The notes under the pieces: model-generated | Told to the model about the DNA's origin: nothing | Seen by the model: only the letters and a program-made list of their open reading frames with translations | The model's database searches: none | Made by a program: the position numbers and the translations under genes | Shown: piece after piece, positions 954 through 18,086 of the stretch | Layout: each line of letters begins with the position of its first letter | How positions within the stretch are numbered: position 1 is the first letter of the stretch | Origin: Lactarius indigo | Taxonomy: Eukaryota > Basidiomycota > Agaricomycetes > Russulales > Russulaceae | Direction: 5' to 3' | DNA length: 64,000 nt | NCBI GenBank assembly: GCA_025766275.1 | Contig: JAFKAC010000058.1 | Coordinates: forward strand, 124,001-188,000

Positions 954-968
954 CATCAGCAAATAAAA
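954..968 (+). repeat. E1 left terminal inverted repeat
   Basis: CATCAGCAAATAAAA; it is the exact reverse complement of 18,072-18,086. Confidence 0.8.
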
Positions 969-969
969 T

Positions 970-1350
970 TTAAATTTTTATGTGCTTACCAAAATCGAAA
1001 GAGCTTACGGAGATTATAATCGGATTTGGACTTATCTTGAAATAACAATTGCTCGTATTGGGCCGTGATTCCGAATGGATTATTATATGCGGCATATAAG
1101 TGCTTATGTTTCTCATGGTCACACGCAGCCCAGCTGTAAGTGCTTGTAATTCTCGTGAAAGTCTCATGGCCGGCTTGTAAGTACATACAATTTTTGGACA
1201 ACTCTCACGGTTGAATGACATGTGCATACAATTCCTGGCTAACTCTCTGACTGAGTTGTAAGCGAATATAATTTCCGGGTGAATCTCATAGCCGAGTGAT
1301 ATGTGCATACAATTTATGTATGTCCTCATGACTGAGTCGTAAGCACTTGT
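970..1350. repeat. E1 left subterminal repeat array
   Basis: About six degenerate copies, roughly 55-65 bp apart, of a motif like GTAAGYRCATAYAATT (for example near 1136, 1179, 1222, 1258, 1300 and 1338). The array lies between the left terminus and the 3' end of the transposase gene. Such clusters are the usual transposase-binding sites of CACTA-type elements. A 168-codon open frame across this stretch is regarded as a by-product of the repeat. Confidence 0.6.
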
Positions 1351-1505
1351 GAGCACATATGACTCTGATGGGCTCGTAGGGCTTGCTAATAATATACATT
1401 GCCTTGAATATGTCCAAAATATATCTGTGCTTGCTGCGAACCTGCTAACACATCCCCACTGCAGGATGTTGTTCACGCAATTTTATAGGATCCAATATAT
1501 ATATA

Positions 1506-4500
1506 TTATAATGCTCCGAGGCCAGCTGCAGTGACAATATCTATATCGTTCAATGGTCTGAGAGTCTGCGCCAGCTCGTTGCTATCCTCTTCATTGCCTA
1601 CACCCTCATCCTCACCTCCACTGCCCAAGTCGGAGTCACTGTCCTGGAGCTCCGACAACTCGACAAGAGAATCTGATATCTCTTCCGGCGGCGGATGTTC
1701 ATCCATGAGTAAGATCTTGCTGCTCTGACGGGTCCCCAGATGGCCAACTCCGCCACCACGATACCGCATAAATAGATCATGATCTGAAAACCTAGGATAA
1801 TGCTAGGAAGTGATACCGATAAACATTCAGTACTTACATCGCAACATAATATTGCTTGTACTCGCCATCCGGATGACAAGTCCGAAGGGCCATAGATGGC
1901 CCACTCATTAACTCCTTCGTACGGCCAGAAACGAAGTCTGGTATCAGATGTACCATCTGTATGACTTCTCTGGGATCTAAAAAGCCAAAGGCTGGCCCCA
2001 GTACGTCAGTGTCAGGCATAAAGCCAACTGAGTGCATCTGTCGTGCACGCCATCCACTATGCCCTTCAGCAGAGTCCAAACCAAACCATCGGACAAATAG
2101 GATGTCCATCCGTCTGGCATCTGTGAGGCCCCCTTGAATCTTTAGCCGGACCATGACATGATATATCCCGATGATTCGAGCGTGCCAGTATGGAAAGGCT
2201 TGATGTCCTTCCTCGTGTGACAGAACGATTACATCTGCATGGGTACAGGGGTTCGCAGACTCATCCATTCTGTGCGCGTCGTATGTTGTGGACATGAACC
2301 GGGTGATTTTGTGCTCGTAAATTCGATTCTGATCAATGACAATTCAGTCACGATCCGAATCTGTGAACTCATGCTCATCACCGGTGTATGGCTGCCCTTC
2401 AATGCGTGCCAAGAGGTGATCATGGAGGCGACACCTGAAGTCCTAGTTGAATGAATGAATTAGTTTTACATGACGCTTGAGAAAGCGCCTAGACTCACAT
2501 GAAGTGCACGATCTTCCTGGTTGTCGGAGAGCCACTGGGTGAGGTTTTTGCTCAACGCTTTAGACTTGGGCATCCAATAGTGTTCTTTTGGGTCACTCAT
2601 TGGGGTGTCCTCATCTTCACGGTGTGAGCACAGGTGGCTTGCTTCTTCATGAGGCCTATTCTCTACTATTGAGGTAGATGGACTCCGCCCTTGATTCAAT
2701 TCCTCAAGCATGGTGGCATAGAATCGTGTGCGTCTCTCCTTATTAGCAACTTGAGAGACGAAGTTTCAATTCTTGTTTGACGCTCTGTACCACTGCTTGG
2801 AAAGATGATGGGCAAGCTCACTCTACAAATATCAGCTGCAGCACATGTTTGGACATCAAAGTGCTTACCGTCTGAGTGTTGTACGAATCCGTTGTACCAT
2901 ATCTCCAGATTGCAGCCGGATAGTCGGGTATGCAGTGAAGTTTGATGGTGGCCATATTGAATGTCTTGTGTTTGGCGGCGGCGCTTGCCCCTTTCCCAGT
3001 CCCGTCGCCGTGCCTTGATCGGGCATTGGCTTCTCATGGTAGCTCTTTTGTAGCGTACCGAGGGCAGGTCACACCTGCAAAGTGTCTCAGTGCTTGGCAA
3101 AGACCAGTACCAACCTTCTCGAGCATTTCCAAGGTTGTGTCAGTGTGCAGGCGGAGTTTGGCATAGGCATGCCAGGTAGCAAGTGTGAACAAGAGATCTG
3201 CAATGCTCCTGTTGTCCTCGTCGTGCGGGAAGAGTCCCTCAAATGCTGGTATTGAGCACTTGTCATCAATGAGTCTCAGTTCTTATCGACGTCTTATTGT
3301 GCACTCACCTGTAGAATATCCTCGTAGTCTCGGGCAGCCAATTTGCTCAGCCCTGAGACACTGCCAGGGAGCTTGCGGATCGTGTCTCTGCCGAATGTCG
3401 GCGTACTGTGAAGTCTTCAATAAAATGAGGCACTAGTACTCGGGATTCCATGGCACTGTGTGAGATACTTACCGTGCATCCAAGTCTGCCACGCGATCTG
3501 CCCCTTGGGGGGATGCATATAGCATCCGGATCAGGTGTGTGAGCACCGACTTCCAGACACCAATTTTGAATTCGTGGAGGAGATCCACGACAAAAATCTT
3601 GTGGTAGTCTTGACCTAGCACATAAAGCTTAGTTGAGAATGCATTCTGGTTAACACATTAGCTGGTTTTAACCTGACAGAGAGGGGACTTGCCCGAGTGG
3701 GAACCATAGAGTGATCTCCAAGAATTTGTTGGACTTGCTTGCTCCAGATTGGTAAACCCTTCTCAAAAATCAATTTGCGTGCCTTCTCAATCTTTTGGAT
3801 TCTTTGGCTGTCGTCGGTGTGAAGCCTCTGGCGTAGCCTTGCATCAGTGGGTGAACCTACGCCAGATATTTCCTTCTTTTTGATCAGACATCGGGGGCAA
3901 GGTGATCGCCCAAGATTCTTAATAGTCGCCAGTAGAACTCTTAGGTCCCATGAGTATCGCGATGTAAAGAATAATAGAGACTTACTTTTCAGGATAGTCG
4001 GCTGAGTATGTGATAATGCGGATAAAAAATACTCGCTCGATGCCATCGGTACATCGAATGGCAAGACCTTTCGTACACCCATCAACAAACTCTTGATCCA
4101 TAAGGTGGTTCCACACGGCATGCATGAGTTCACGCTTGCAGTGGACCTCGATATCTGGTGAGGGTGCTTGACCTGTCTTCTCTTGGTACCGGCTCGCGAA
4201 GTCTTCACCAAGCTGTATCGAGATTTATTAAGTGATTCTGTCATTTAACTAGGGAGAAACTTACCGAAGGAACGTATGCTAGATGATGTACCGCATGACA
4301 TGAGGGTCTCACCCTCTCTAGTTTCGACTGGTTCGCAAACATGAGGTATACTGGCCATACTGAGGCCGTTCCAAAACTTGTAAGTTGGGCCGAGTCCGAC
4401 GCCAACATGATACCGAGTGCCACATGCTCCCTTCTATCGCCTTCCGGCCGAGGGAGGTCGTCGATGTCTTTTTGCGCCTGGATCATTGCGTCCGATGTGT

Positions 4501-17449: not shown

Positions 17450-17599
17450 TTCGTAACTTGTATTGGCTCGATGTACAGTAGCACGAAATAGTCAGAATAT
17501 GACAACGTTTCGAAACAATTGTATGGGATGACGAGCGCATCTAAACAAGAAATAGTACCATGACCGAAAATGATCGATTTATTGATGGGAACTTTATTG

Positions 17600-18060
17600 A
17601 CAAACGGTGATCACTTACAAGTGAATATAAGCCATTGTGAGCACTCGCATGCAATAAAAGCGTCCTCAAGACAATCAAATACTTGTAAATTAGAAATGTG
17701 AATATAATCAATTAAAAGTGATTGCGGAGGGCAGTGACACTCACAAGCAGCATAAAATTTGTGCAAGGGATTGCAATTTTCAAAATCGATAAGAAGCGCG
17801 TGCAAGCTACGGAAGTGCATACAATTTAGGAACATGATTATAAACTACTAAAGCGATTAGAAGCGCATACAACTCTTGTGAAGAGTTTTCGTTCATGAAA
17901 GGCAATACAATCTGCAAAAGCGAATATAAGCGATTACCATTCATGGGCATAATTGCCAAACGATTTCAAAACCATCGAACGATCACAATCACTTTCGGCG
18001 ATTTGTAATCCCGGACCTGCTCAGACCGCTTACAGCGATTATAAGCGGTTATAACCACTT
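17600..18060. repeat. E1 right subterminal repeat array
   Basis: Many degenerate copies of AAGYGSATAYAAT-type motifs (near 17,620, 17,697, 17,812, 17,860, 17,920 and 18,040), in both orientations. They resemble those at the left end, but this array is longer. No gene is supported here. Confidence 0.6.
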
Positions 18061-18071
18061 GTCAACCTTTT

Positions 18072-18086
18072 TTTTATTTGCTGATG
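18072..18086 (-). repeat. E1 right terminal inverted repeat
   Basis: TTTTATTTGCTGATG, the exact reverse complement of the left end at 954-968. Host spacer sequence resumes at 18,087 or a few bases before it. Confidence 0.8.

What the first reader, a model, noticed from the sequence alone, without database searches (positions are those of the whole stretch)
954..18086. A 17-kb Plavaka-type transposon that moved as one unit with Spt5-like, Myb/Reb1-like and DUF6698-like cargo
Seen: 15-bp perfect inverted ends, subterminal repeat arrays at both ends, and a Plavaka transposase inside. Host sequence on the two sides is contiguous with the homologous spacers of genes B and D, which are natural empty sites. 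Everything between therefore arrived together and is not host DNA that happens to lie between two repeats. Known: Plavaka elements are CACTA-like transposons of agaricomycetes. Inferred: carrying an RNA polymerase II elongation-factor homologue and a Reb1/TTF1-like Myb protein suggests that the element manipulates transcription or replication passage at its own locus, or that a transposon captured host genes.
Basis: partly seen in the sequence, partly recalled or inferred. Interest (0 to 1): 0.85.

Follow-up and report, generated by a model that had tools for sequence, protein, structure and literature searches.

The report
Mushroom transposon carrying an Spt5 relative
A mobile DNA element in a milk-cap mushroom carries, besides its own transposase, a relative of the universal RNA polymerase elongation factor Spt5 paired with a DNA-binding protein, which may help the element to be transcribed; in this particular copy the Spt5 relative has been broken by a second transposon.

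Summary
The window (Lactarius indigo) holds a genuine PlavakaB DNA transposon: 15-bp perfect termini CATCAGCA…TGCTGATG and a 2-bp CA duplication, with uninterrupted paralogous empty sites elsewhere. All 25 copies whose two ends I read have matching 2-bp duplications. Three corrections. (1) The unit is 12.7 kb, not 17: a 4.4-kb hAT transposon (8809-13214, 8-bp duplication) sits in exon 3 of the Spt5-like gene and is absent from the six other copies. (2) DUF6698 is apparently a regular PlavakaB gene, not captured cargo: 29 of 38 DUF6698 genes lie within 20 kb of a window-type transposase, 27 head-to-head, and one two-gene element (C46) was delimited. (3) The extra cargo is a cassette between these two genes: ORF X, a Reb1-like Myb gene, a hairpin and the Spt5 paralogue. 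Myb and Spt5-like occur together in all 7 close copies and share a contig in three other Lactarius species. Both show purifying selection on the deeper branch, but no copy here has both intact. Best mechanistic guess (about 0.35): an element-dedicated Pol II elongation factor with its DNA-binding partner, comparable in role to RfaH-type NusG paralogues. Function is untested.

The parts
954..18086 (+). PlavakaB transposon copy (12.7 kb of its own sequence plus a 4.4-kb nested hAT)
954..968 (+). left terminal inverted repeat CATCAGCAAATAAAA
   Evidence: at other copies
18072..18086 (-). right terminal inverted repeat
952..953 (.). 2-bp target-site duplication CA (left); partner at 18087-18088
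985..1370 (+). left subterminal direct-repeat array (spacing 41 and 81 bp); limits approximate
17600..18060 (+). right subterminal repeat array, same motif and same orientation as on the left; limits approximate
1506..5734 (-). Plavaka transposase gene (C2H2 finger at the N-terminus; exon boundaries approximate)
6007..6411 (+). ORF X, unknown, no Pfam match; without stop or indel in 3 of 7 copies (window, C217, C168), one stop in C1, 10 + 1 deleted bases in C53, C33 and C265
6580..7783 (-). Reb1-like Myb gene, 7 exons, about 299 aa; donor of exon 4 reads CT instead of GT in this copy; last exon not fixed
7868..8183 (.). long hairpin (120-nt arms, 95% complementary) between the divergent Myb and Spt5-like genes; found at the 7 cassette copies and at 7 cassette fragments only
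8413..15381 (+). Spt5-like gene (8 exons, 734 aa in the C53 copy); here split by hAT in exon 3 and carrying three 1-bp insertions and two in-register stops
8809..13214 (+). nested hAT transposon; 8-bp duplication GTCAGTTC at 8801-8808 / 13215-13222
15527..17449 (+). DUF6698 gene (conserved exon pieces 15527-16818, then an Ala-rich stretch; 3' part assigned by reading frame only); apparently a regular PlavakaB gene

Best explanation
Shown: 954-18086 is a PlavakaB (CACTA-related) cut-and-paste transposon of Lactarius indigo whose basic gene pair appears to be a transposase and a divergent DUF6698 gene. In this lineage a cassette lies between the two: X, a Reb1-like Myb gene and an Spt5 paralogue in divergent orientation around a long hairpin. 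This copy was later hit by a hAT element in the Spt5-like gene. Myb and Spt5-like are long-standing partners kept by selection in the past, not a fresh capture. Inferred: the Myb protein binds DNA of the element (subterminal repeats or the divergent promoter). The Spt5-like protein keeps NGN and KOW domains, hence probably Spt4 and Pol II clamp binding, but lacks C-terminal repeats. It rides on Pol II transcribing the element and raises processivity through long or silenced element genes. That would be a dedicated elongation factor, comparable in role to RfaH-type NusG paralogues of bacteria and to the TET/JBP genes of other PlavakaB elements. I put the anatomy at about 0.9 and the functional part at about 0.35.
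For: Element. PlavakaB termini and TSD as in PMC12730594. Two-gene element C46:757964-767345 with TSD TA and DUF6698 linkage (29 of 38 genes after merging two split ones). Spt5 identity: PF03439 E 1.2e-12, KOW5 E 1.3e-11, S. pombe Spt5 E 4.4e-26, Foldseek to DSIF (low TM-scores); residues aligned with yeast S324 and E338 mostly kept. Myb identity: Reb1 5eyb is first by sequence and by Foldseek. Selection, C53 group against the other lineages: Spt5-like w 0.26-0.31 against a CpG-matched neutral 0.62-0.63, 0 of 300 in each of 4 pairs; Myb 0.27-0.33 against 0.60-0.65, 0-3 of 300 in 4 pairs; these pairs share one branch and are not independent.
Against: No expression, binding or transposition data. 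Spt5-like is free of frameshifts and in-register stops in only 1 of 7 copies (C53, on which the model was built), and that copy has two 1-bp insertions in Myb: none of the 7 has both genes intact. Between the more recent copies w is mostly near the neutral control, the transposase included; X is not below the control against the C53 group. Myb-Spt5 pairs at C112, C275, C2 and C35 lie outside recognised window-type Plavaka elements, so the pair is not exclusive to them. About 20 elements share the ends but none of the interior, so the cassette is not needed in cis for movement. The AlphaFold model of the Spt5-DUF6698 protein is poor overall (mean pLDDT 43.6).
Confidence: 0.55

Rival explanations
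1. Passenger capture: the Myb-Spt5 pair was an existing Russulaceae gene pair (perhaps of another mobile element) that happened to be enclosed by PlavakaB ends and has no role for the transposon; the selection seen acted on it elsewhere.
For: Pairs exist without a window-type Plavaka match within 20 kb at C112, C275, C2 and C35; 6 of 7 copies carry broken Spt5-like genes; a two-gene PlavakaB element moved without it.
Against: Spt5-like is annotated in one protein with DUF6698, a PlavakaB-linked gene, in L. sanguifluus, L. quietus and L. tabidus (4 of 20 homologues); the three of these four that are in the tree fall in different branches: an old association.
Confidence: 0.3
2. The Myb protein is the element's TNPA-like terminal-binding protein and acts in transposition (synapsis or regulation), while Spt5-like is an accessory whose role is minor.
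For: Subterminal repeat arrays at both ends are the kind of site that TNPA binds in plant CACTA elements (recalled); Nuwa (Harbinger-group) families encode a Myb/SANT DNA-binding protein beside the transposase (PMC12730594, passage).
Against: A PlavakaB element with DUF6698 but no Myb exists and has the same terminal sequence, with only weak similarity further inside the ends, so DUF6698 is at least as good a candidate; no binding test was possible.
Confidence: 0.25
3. Spt5-like acts on the host rather than on the element: it competes with housekeeping Spt5 for Spt4 or Pol II and dampens transcription-coupled silencing or small-RNA production against transposons.
For: NGN conserved, no C-terminal repeat region; plant RDM3/KTF1, an Spt5 relative working in RNA-directed DNA methylation, is among the PDB matches (8hyj, E 3.9e-14).
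Against: No direct evidence; cannot be separated from the best explanation by sequence.
Confidence: 0.15
4. Two host repeats by chance flank unrelated host genes; no single mobile unit.
For: None found.
Against: Matching 2-bp duplications in 25 of 25 copies read at both ends, empty sites, a colinear second full copy at another site, whose flanks do not match the window's.
Confidence: 0.01

Closest known systems
PlavakaB DNA transposons (Kojima 2025, PMC12730594; abstract, outline and passages seen)
   Same: Termini CATCA..TGATG, 2- or 3-bp duplication, Plavaka transposase; some PlavakaB families also carry an extra gene (TET/JBP).
   Different: The extra genes here are a Reb1-like Myb gene and an Spt5 paralogue; in that paper's main text Spt5 and KOW have no occurrence, Myb two and DUF one (its supplements were not readable). 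DUF6698 is in none of the papers of the library searched.
Specialised NusG paralogues such as RfaH, LoaP, ActX (PMC3382729 passages seen; PMC7819879, PMC7593976, PMC12691694, PMC13250579 search listing only)
   Same: A paralogue of the universal elongation factor dedicated to few targets; RfaH promotes expression of 'foreign' operons; some act on plasmid transfer operons (recalled).
   Different: Bacterial; here a eukaryotic Spt5 paralogue inside a DNA transposon; dedication to the element is inferred only.
Plant KTF1/RDM3 (Spt5-like factor of Pol V; PMC10229537 abstract start in a listing)
   Same: Spt5 paralogue; PDB 8hyj matched.
   Different: Host gene acting in silencing; not carried by a transposon (recalled).
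S. pombe Reb1 / TTF-I
   Same: Tandem Myb domains; 5eyb is the top hit by sequence (E 1.1e-6) and by Foldseek (E 2.1e-6).
   Different: About 300 aa, 19-20% identical in the Foldseek alignments; DNA target unknown.
CACTA/EnSpm elements with two genes (TNPD, TNPA; recalled)
   Same: Transposase plus a second protein, subterminal repeat arrays.
   Different: The regular second gene here is DUF6698, whose relation to TNPA was not tested; 2-bp rather than 3-bp duplication; repeats in one orientation at both ends.

Membership tests
PlavakaB transposon | termini 5'-CATCA..TGATG-3' | tested here: met
   definition from PMC12730594
PlavakaB transposon | 2- or 3-bp target-site duplication | tested here: met
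   2 bp in 25 of 25 copies read at both ends
PlavakaB transposon | Plavaka-type transposase | tested here: met
   PF18759 E 1.2e-15; close homologues P0033-P0039 in Lactarius
PlavakaB transposon | place in a transposase tree with PlavakaB rather than PlavakaA | not tested
   no reference sequences at hand; supplements could not be read
Spt5 | NGN domain | tested here: met
   PF03439 E 1.2e-12 in the C53 copy
Spt5 | several KOW domains | tested here: met
   KOW5_SPT5 E 1.3e-11; phmmer match to S. pombe Spt5 over residues 8-402; Foldseek matches along DSIF including KOW6-KOW7 5ohq from a low-confidence model
Spt5 | acidic N-terminus | tested here: met
   visible in the sequence; PF11942 only in P0018, E 0.0021, below its cut-off
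Spt5 | C-terminal repeat (CTR) | tested here: not met
   no repeat in the 734-aa model; P0001 and P0003 end at the same place; hence Spt5 paralogue, not Spt5
Spt5 | binding to Spt4 and Pol II | not testable with these tools
   only residue conservation; S324/E338 as interface residues are recalled
Reb1/TTF-I | tandem Myb/SANT repeats with Reb1 as nearest structure | tested here: met
   whole-chain TM-scores low (0.27-0.29)
Reb1/TTF-I | Pol I termination or fork arrest | not testable with these tools
   none
hAT (nested element) | 8-bp duplication, short inverted termini, hAT dimerisation domain | tested here: met
EnSpm/CACTA sensu stricto | 5'-CAC..GTG-3' termini and 3-bp duplication (as given in PMC12730594) | tested here: not met
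   CATCA termini, 2-bp duplication

The most novel reading that the evidence does not exclude
A eukaryotic DNA transposon lineage encodes its own RNA polymerase II elongation factor: an Spt5 paralogue that, guided by its divergently transcribed Reb1-like partner, is loaded on Pol II transcribing the element and lets it read through silenced element genes, a eukaryotic counterpart of RfaH.
Probability: 0.25. Interest if true: 0.9.

Novelty: new variant of a known kind. Interest (0 to 1): 0.66.

Why it matters
Spt5/NusG is the only RNA polymerase-associated factor conserved in all domains of life (PMC3382729, abstract start). Dedicated paralogues are known in bacteria, but the searches in an open-licence library listed no report of one inside a eukaryotic transposon; a 2026 survey of elongation factors (PMC13289920) has no occurrence of 'transpos' or 'Basidiomycota' in its main text. 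If the function holds, it is a second possible anti-silencing strategy beside the TET/JBP genes of PlavakaB elements, and a natural case of an Spt5 relative working without C-terminal repeats. Independently, the linkage of DUF6698 to Plavaka transposases gives a family without a described role a testable one.

Tried and rejected
Rejected: the 17-kb unit (nested hAT); DUF6698 as captured cargo; the hairpin 7868-8183 as a dispersed MITE (14 places: 7 cassette copies and 7 cassette fragments); small end-sharing elements as deletion derivatives (no match to window 1301-17590 at E 1e-8 in any of 24 loci tested; C270, C13 and C240 were tested in part only); the annotated Spt5-DUF6698 proteins as true fusions (P0001 and P0003 stop at EPLK and the fused models differ in their joins; adjacency is the safer reading).

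Led nowhere: termini around the C53/C33/C265 cassette (no CATCA pair found in C53:30000-54000); right end of C168 (no remnant in C168:478000-487082); structure of DUF6698 (pLDDT mostly under 40); Plavaka on the Myb-Spt5 contigs of other species (only a 1.0-Mb L. sanguifluus contig shared between P0004 and P0039: weak); Plavaka upstream of the C22 copy of DUF6698 (none in C22:48200-52300 with five Plavaka proteins). Plain w values overstate selection: a CpG-matched control gives 0.48-0.81. The AlphaFold model of Myb is fair (pLDDT 74.4, pTM 0.36). The S324/E338 search found no paper naming E338 among the eight listed.
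Full report
What is there. The window lies in contig C246 (124001-188000) of a 90.3-Mb genome. Two annotated homologues named Lactarius indigo lie on contigs whose lengths equal C33 (140361) and C168 (779417), so the host is L. indigo. Between 954 and 18086 lies a transposon with 15-bp perfect inverted ends and a CA duplication. Each end has 40 matches in the genome, the number scored, some of them partial. I fetched part of these and read both ends of 25 copies, the window included: all 25 have the same 2 bp on both sides; five pairs have the same flanks (alleles or duplicates), leaving about 20 distinct sites; the two C240 ends are 25 kb apart and their pairing is assumed. 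Two further loci gave one end only (C168:499968 and C53:27536). Joined flanks match uninterrupted paralogous spacers elsewhere (9 matches over 1-624 or 3-624 on C230, C190, C279 and C246, 84-92%); at the best one the sequence runs through the junction with a single CG where the window has CA on both sides.

Not one unit. A 4406-bp hAT element lies at 8809-13214, flanked by GTCAGTTC (8801-8808, 13215-13222), with inverted termini and a hAT dimerisation domain (E 2.7e-9). The six other cassette copies lack it and relatives are spread over the genome. The Plavaka element itself is 12.7 kb. By the gene model of the C53 copy the hAT lies near the end of exon 3 of the Spt5-like gene.

Copies. C217:530517-543993 is colinear at 95-97%, with an insertion in Spt5-like and a rearranged hairpin. 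C1:3553789-3573811 has both ends and an internal inversion. C168 is colinear up to window 16324 and shows no right end. C53, C33 and C265 are 99.3-99.5% identical to each other over 16-17 kb and keep only the middle (window 5088-15404) at 90-91%; no CATCA end pair was found at C53. About 20 other elements share 150-350 bp of end sequence but no interior, so they are probably mobilised in trans (inference); one 8.7-kb type carries an ORF with a weak Ulp1 match (E 0.01, below cut-off).

DUF6698 belongs to the transposon. A search with PF20414 gave 101 exon matches, which I grouped into 40 clusters. A search with a 345-aa piece of the window's transposase gave 52 matches, at 43 entries after leaving out further pieces of the same loci. 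31 of 40 clusters lie within 20 kb of such a match, 29 head-to-head. Two genes were counted twice because they are split (C226:585945/594170 and C240:84602/89053), which makes 29 of 38 and 27 head-to-head; without the four cassette copies themselves it is 25 of 34. Chance is about 1.9% per locus if places were uniform, which transposons are not; and at least 11 loci have the same scores and are probably copies of one another, so these are not independent events. Nine are not linked: seven of one type by score (C104, C242, C11, C73, C89, C167, C22; at C22 no Plavaka in 4.1 kb upstream), C267 and C226:1317034. One two-gene member was delimited: C46:757964-767345, 9382 bp, TSD TA, transposase and DUF6698, no Myb or Spt5-like match.

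The cassette. Between transposase and DUF6698 lie ORF X, a Myb gene, a hairpin and the Spt5-like gene. Myb DNA is found at exactly 7 places (7 candidates, all scored) and Spt5-like at the same 7; Spt5-like has in addition seven 247-bp fragments and four more distant matches (21 matches in all). The hairpin occurs at the 7 copies and at 7 places beside those fragments, nowhere else (14 candidates, all scored); it folds at -259.7 kcal/mol against a shuffle mean of -111.5. Few of its changes are compensatory (1-5 per copy, against 2-14 broken pairs), so homogenisation of the arms explains it as well as selection. At protein level weak Myb relatives lie beside divergent Spt5-like genes at C112 and C275 (10 kb apart, divergent) and at C2 and C35 (3 kb apart, same strand); other weak Myb hits (two places on C1, C113, C112:3200144, C266, C42) have no such neighbour, and the Spt5-like loci C238/C14, C53:19122 with its relatives, and C280/C2:747682 have no Myb hit. 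None of the divergent Spt5-like loci has a window-type Plavaka hit within 20 kb except C53:19122, whose neighbour at 39332 belongs to the C53 cassette copy.

Other species. Spt5-like has 20 homologues; all that carry an organism name are Lactarius or Lactifluus (only the 7995 candidates sharing most words were scored). Four are annotated as one protein with DUF6698 (P0002, P0004, P0009, P0018). Myb has 12 homologues, all named ones Lactarius. Three of the 12 share a contig length with an Spt5-like protein: L. psammicola 71183, L. pseudohatsudake 182797 with consecutive locus tags (2149580, 2149581), L. quietus 128798; the other nine do not. For the transposase (17 homologues) only one contig is shared, the 1009858-bp contig of L. 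sanguifluus (P0004, P0039), too long to prove linkage.

What the proteins are. Spt5-like: NGN E 1.2e-12, KOW5 E 1.3e-11; best solved relative S. pombe Spt5, E 4.4e-26 over residues 8-402; the low-confidence model of P0002 (mean pLDDT 43.6; NGN and KOW blocks about 63-86) matches Spt5 chains of Pol II complexes, E down to 1.2e-23 with low whole-chain TM-scores. Residues aligned with yeast S324 and E338 (Spt4 interface, recalled) are S in 16 of 18 and E in 19 of 19 rows with a residue in alignment A1. There is no C-terminal repeat. The housekeeping-type Spt5 of this genome is at C224/C59, with a relative at C201. In a FastTree of 23 sequences and 340 columns all Spt5-like proteins group (0.938), separated from housekeeping Spt5 and yeasts by a branch of 1.35; the origin within fungi is unresolved. 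Myb: S. pombe Reb1 is first by sequence (E 1.1e-6) and by Foldseek (E 2.1e-6).

Selection. Counting in register, Spt5-like is intact only in C53, the reference; the window copy has three 1-bp insertions and two stops besides the hAT. Myb has no indel or stop in the window, C217, C33 and C265, one stop in C1 and C168 and two insertions in C53. So none of the 7 has both intact. A control that redistributes the observed changes with their CpG status gives mean w 0.48-0.81. I ran 8 chosen pairs (of 21 possible), 4 of them against the C53 group. Against that group w is low for Spt5-like (0.26-0.31; 0 of 300 in each of 4 pairs) and Myb (0.27-0.33; 0-3 of 300), not clearly for X (0.39-0.45; 48-64 of 300). 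Among C246, C217, C1 and C168, Spt5-like is low in 2 of 4 pairs (2 and 1 of 300), DUF6698 in 2 of 4 (10 and 4), X in 1 of 4 (2), and the transposase and Myb in none. So Spt5-like and Myb were maintained on the deeper branch and the present copies are decaying.

How it might work. PMC12730594 (abstract, outline and passages) reports that some PlavakaB elements carry TET/JBP genes thought to help transposons escape methylation-based silencing. An Spt5 paralogue with a DNA-binding partner fits the same need, by keeping Pol II going through silenced element DNA. RfaH is the bacterial precedent (PMC3382729, passages). Every step from binding to function is inference.

Literature. Searches for Plavaka, Spt5 with transposons and KOW, DUF6698 (none), L. 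indigo genome, Spt5 paralogue and NusG, CACTA with TNPA, Reb1 and transposon and Lactarius with transposable elements listed no paper whose title or abstract start describes this cassette; most subscription papers are not in the library, and Iyer et al. 2014 was not held.

Noticed in passing
window 7868-8183: Very stable long hairpin between the divergent Myb and Spt5-like genes, found only with cassette sequence; its centre matches better in the inverted direction in some copies (C168, C53 group), as if the loop flips.
   Followed up: partly
L024 (C226:600-10599); L039 (C168:647800-656999) has the same flanks and size: 8.7-kb element with the same ends but other genes: in L024 an ORF with a weak Ulp1 protease match and two long ORFs without Pfam match. 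The ORFs of L039 were not read.
   Followed up: partly
C53, C33, C265, C26, C109, C87, C250: Contigs that share several cassette-related segments (247-bp fragments with hairpin; on some also a full copy or a more distant Spt5-like gene): possibly a large duplicated or subtelomeric block.
   Followed up: no
C104, C242, C11, C73, C89, C167, C22: DUF6698 loci with the same or nearly the same scores; no Plavaka in the 4.1 kb upstream of the C22 copy: perhaps another element family using DUF6698.
   Followed up: partly
window 1-953 and 18087-19600: The host locus is a spacer in a large paralogous gene array with matches on C246, C230, C190 and C279.
   Followed up: partly
window 954-1370 and 17600-18086: Subterminal repeats have the same orientation at both ends, not mirror orientation.
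   Followed up: partly
L025-L028, L049 (C270, C13, C240): End-sharing elements of 10 kb (C270, C13) and 25 kb (C240) owe much of their length to Gypsy-type polyproteins inside, by eye from the ORFs.
   Followed up: no
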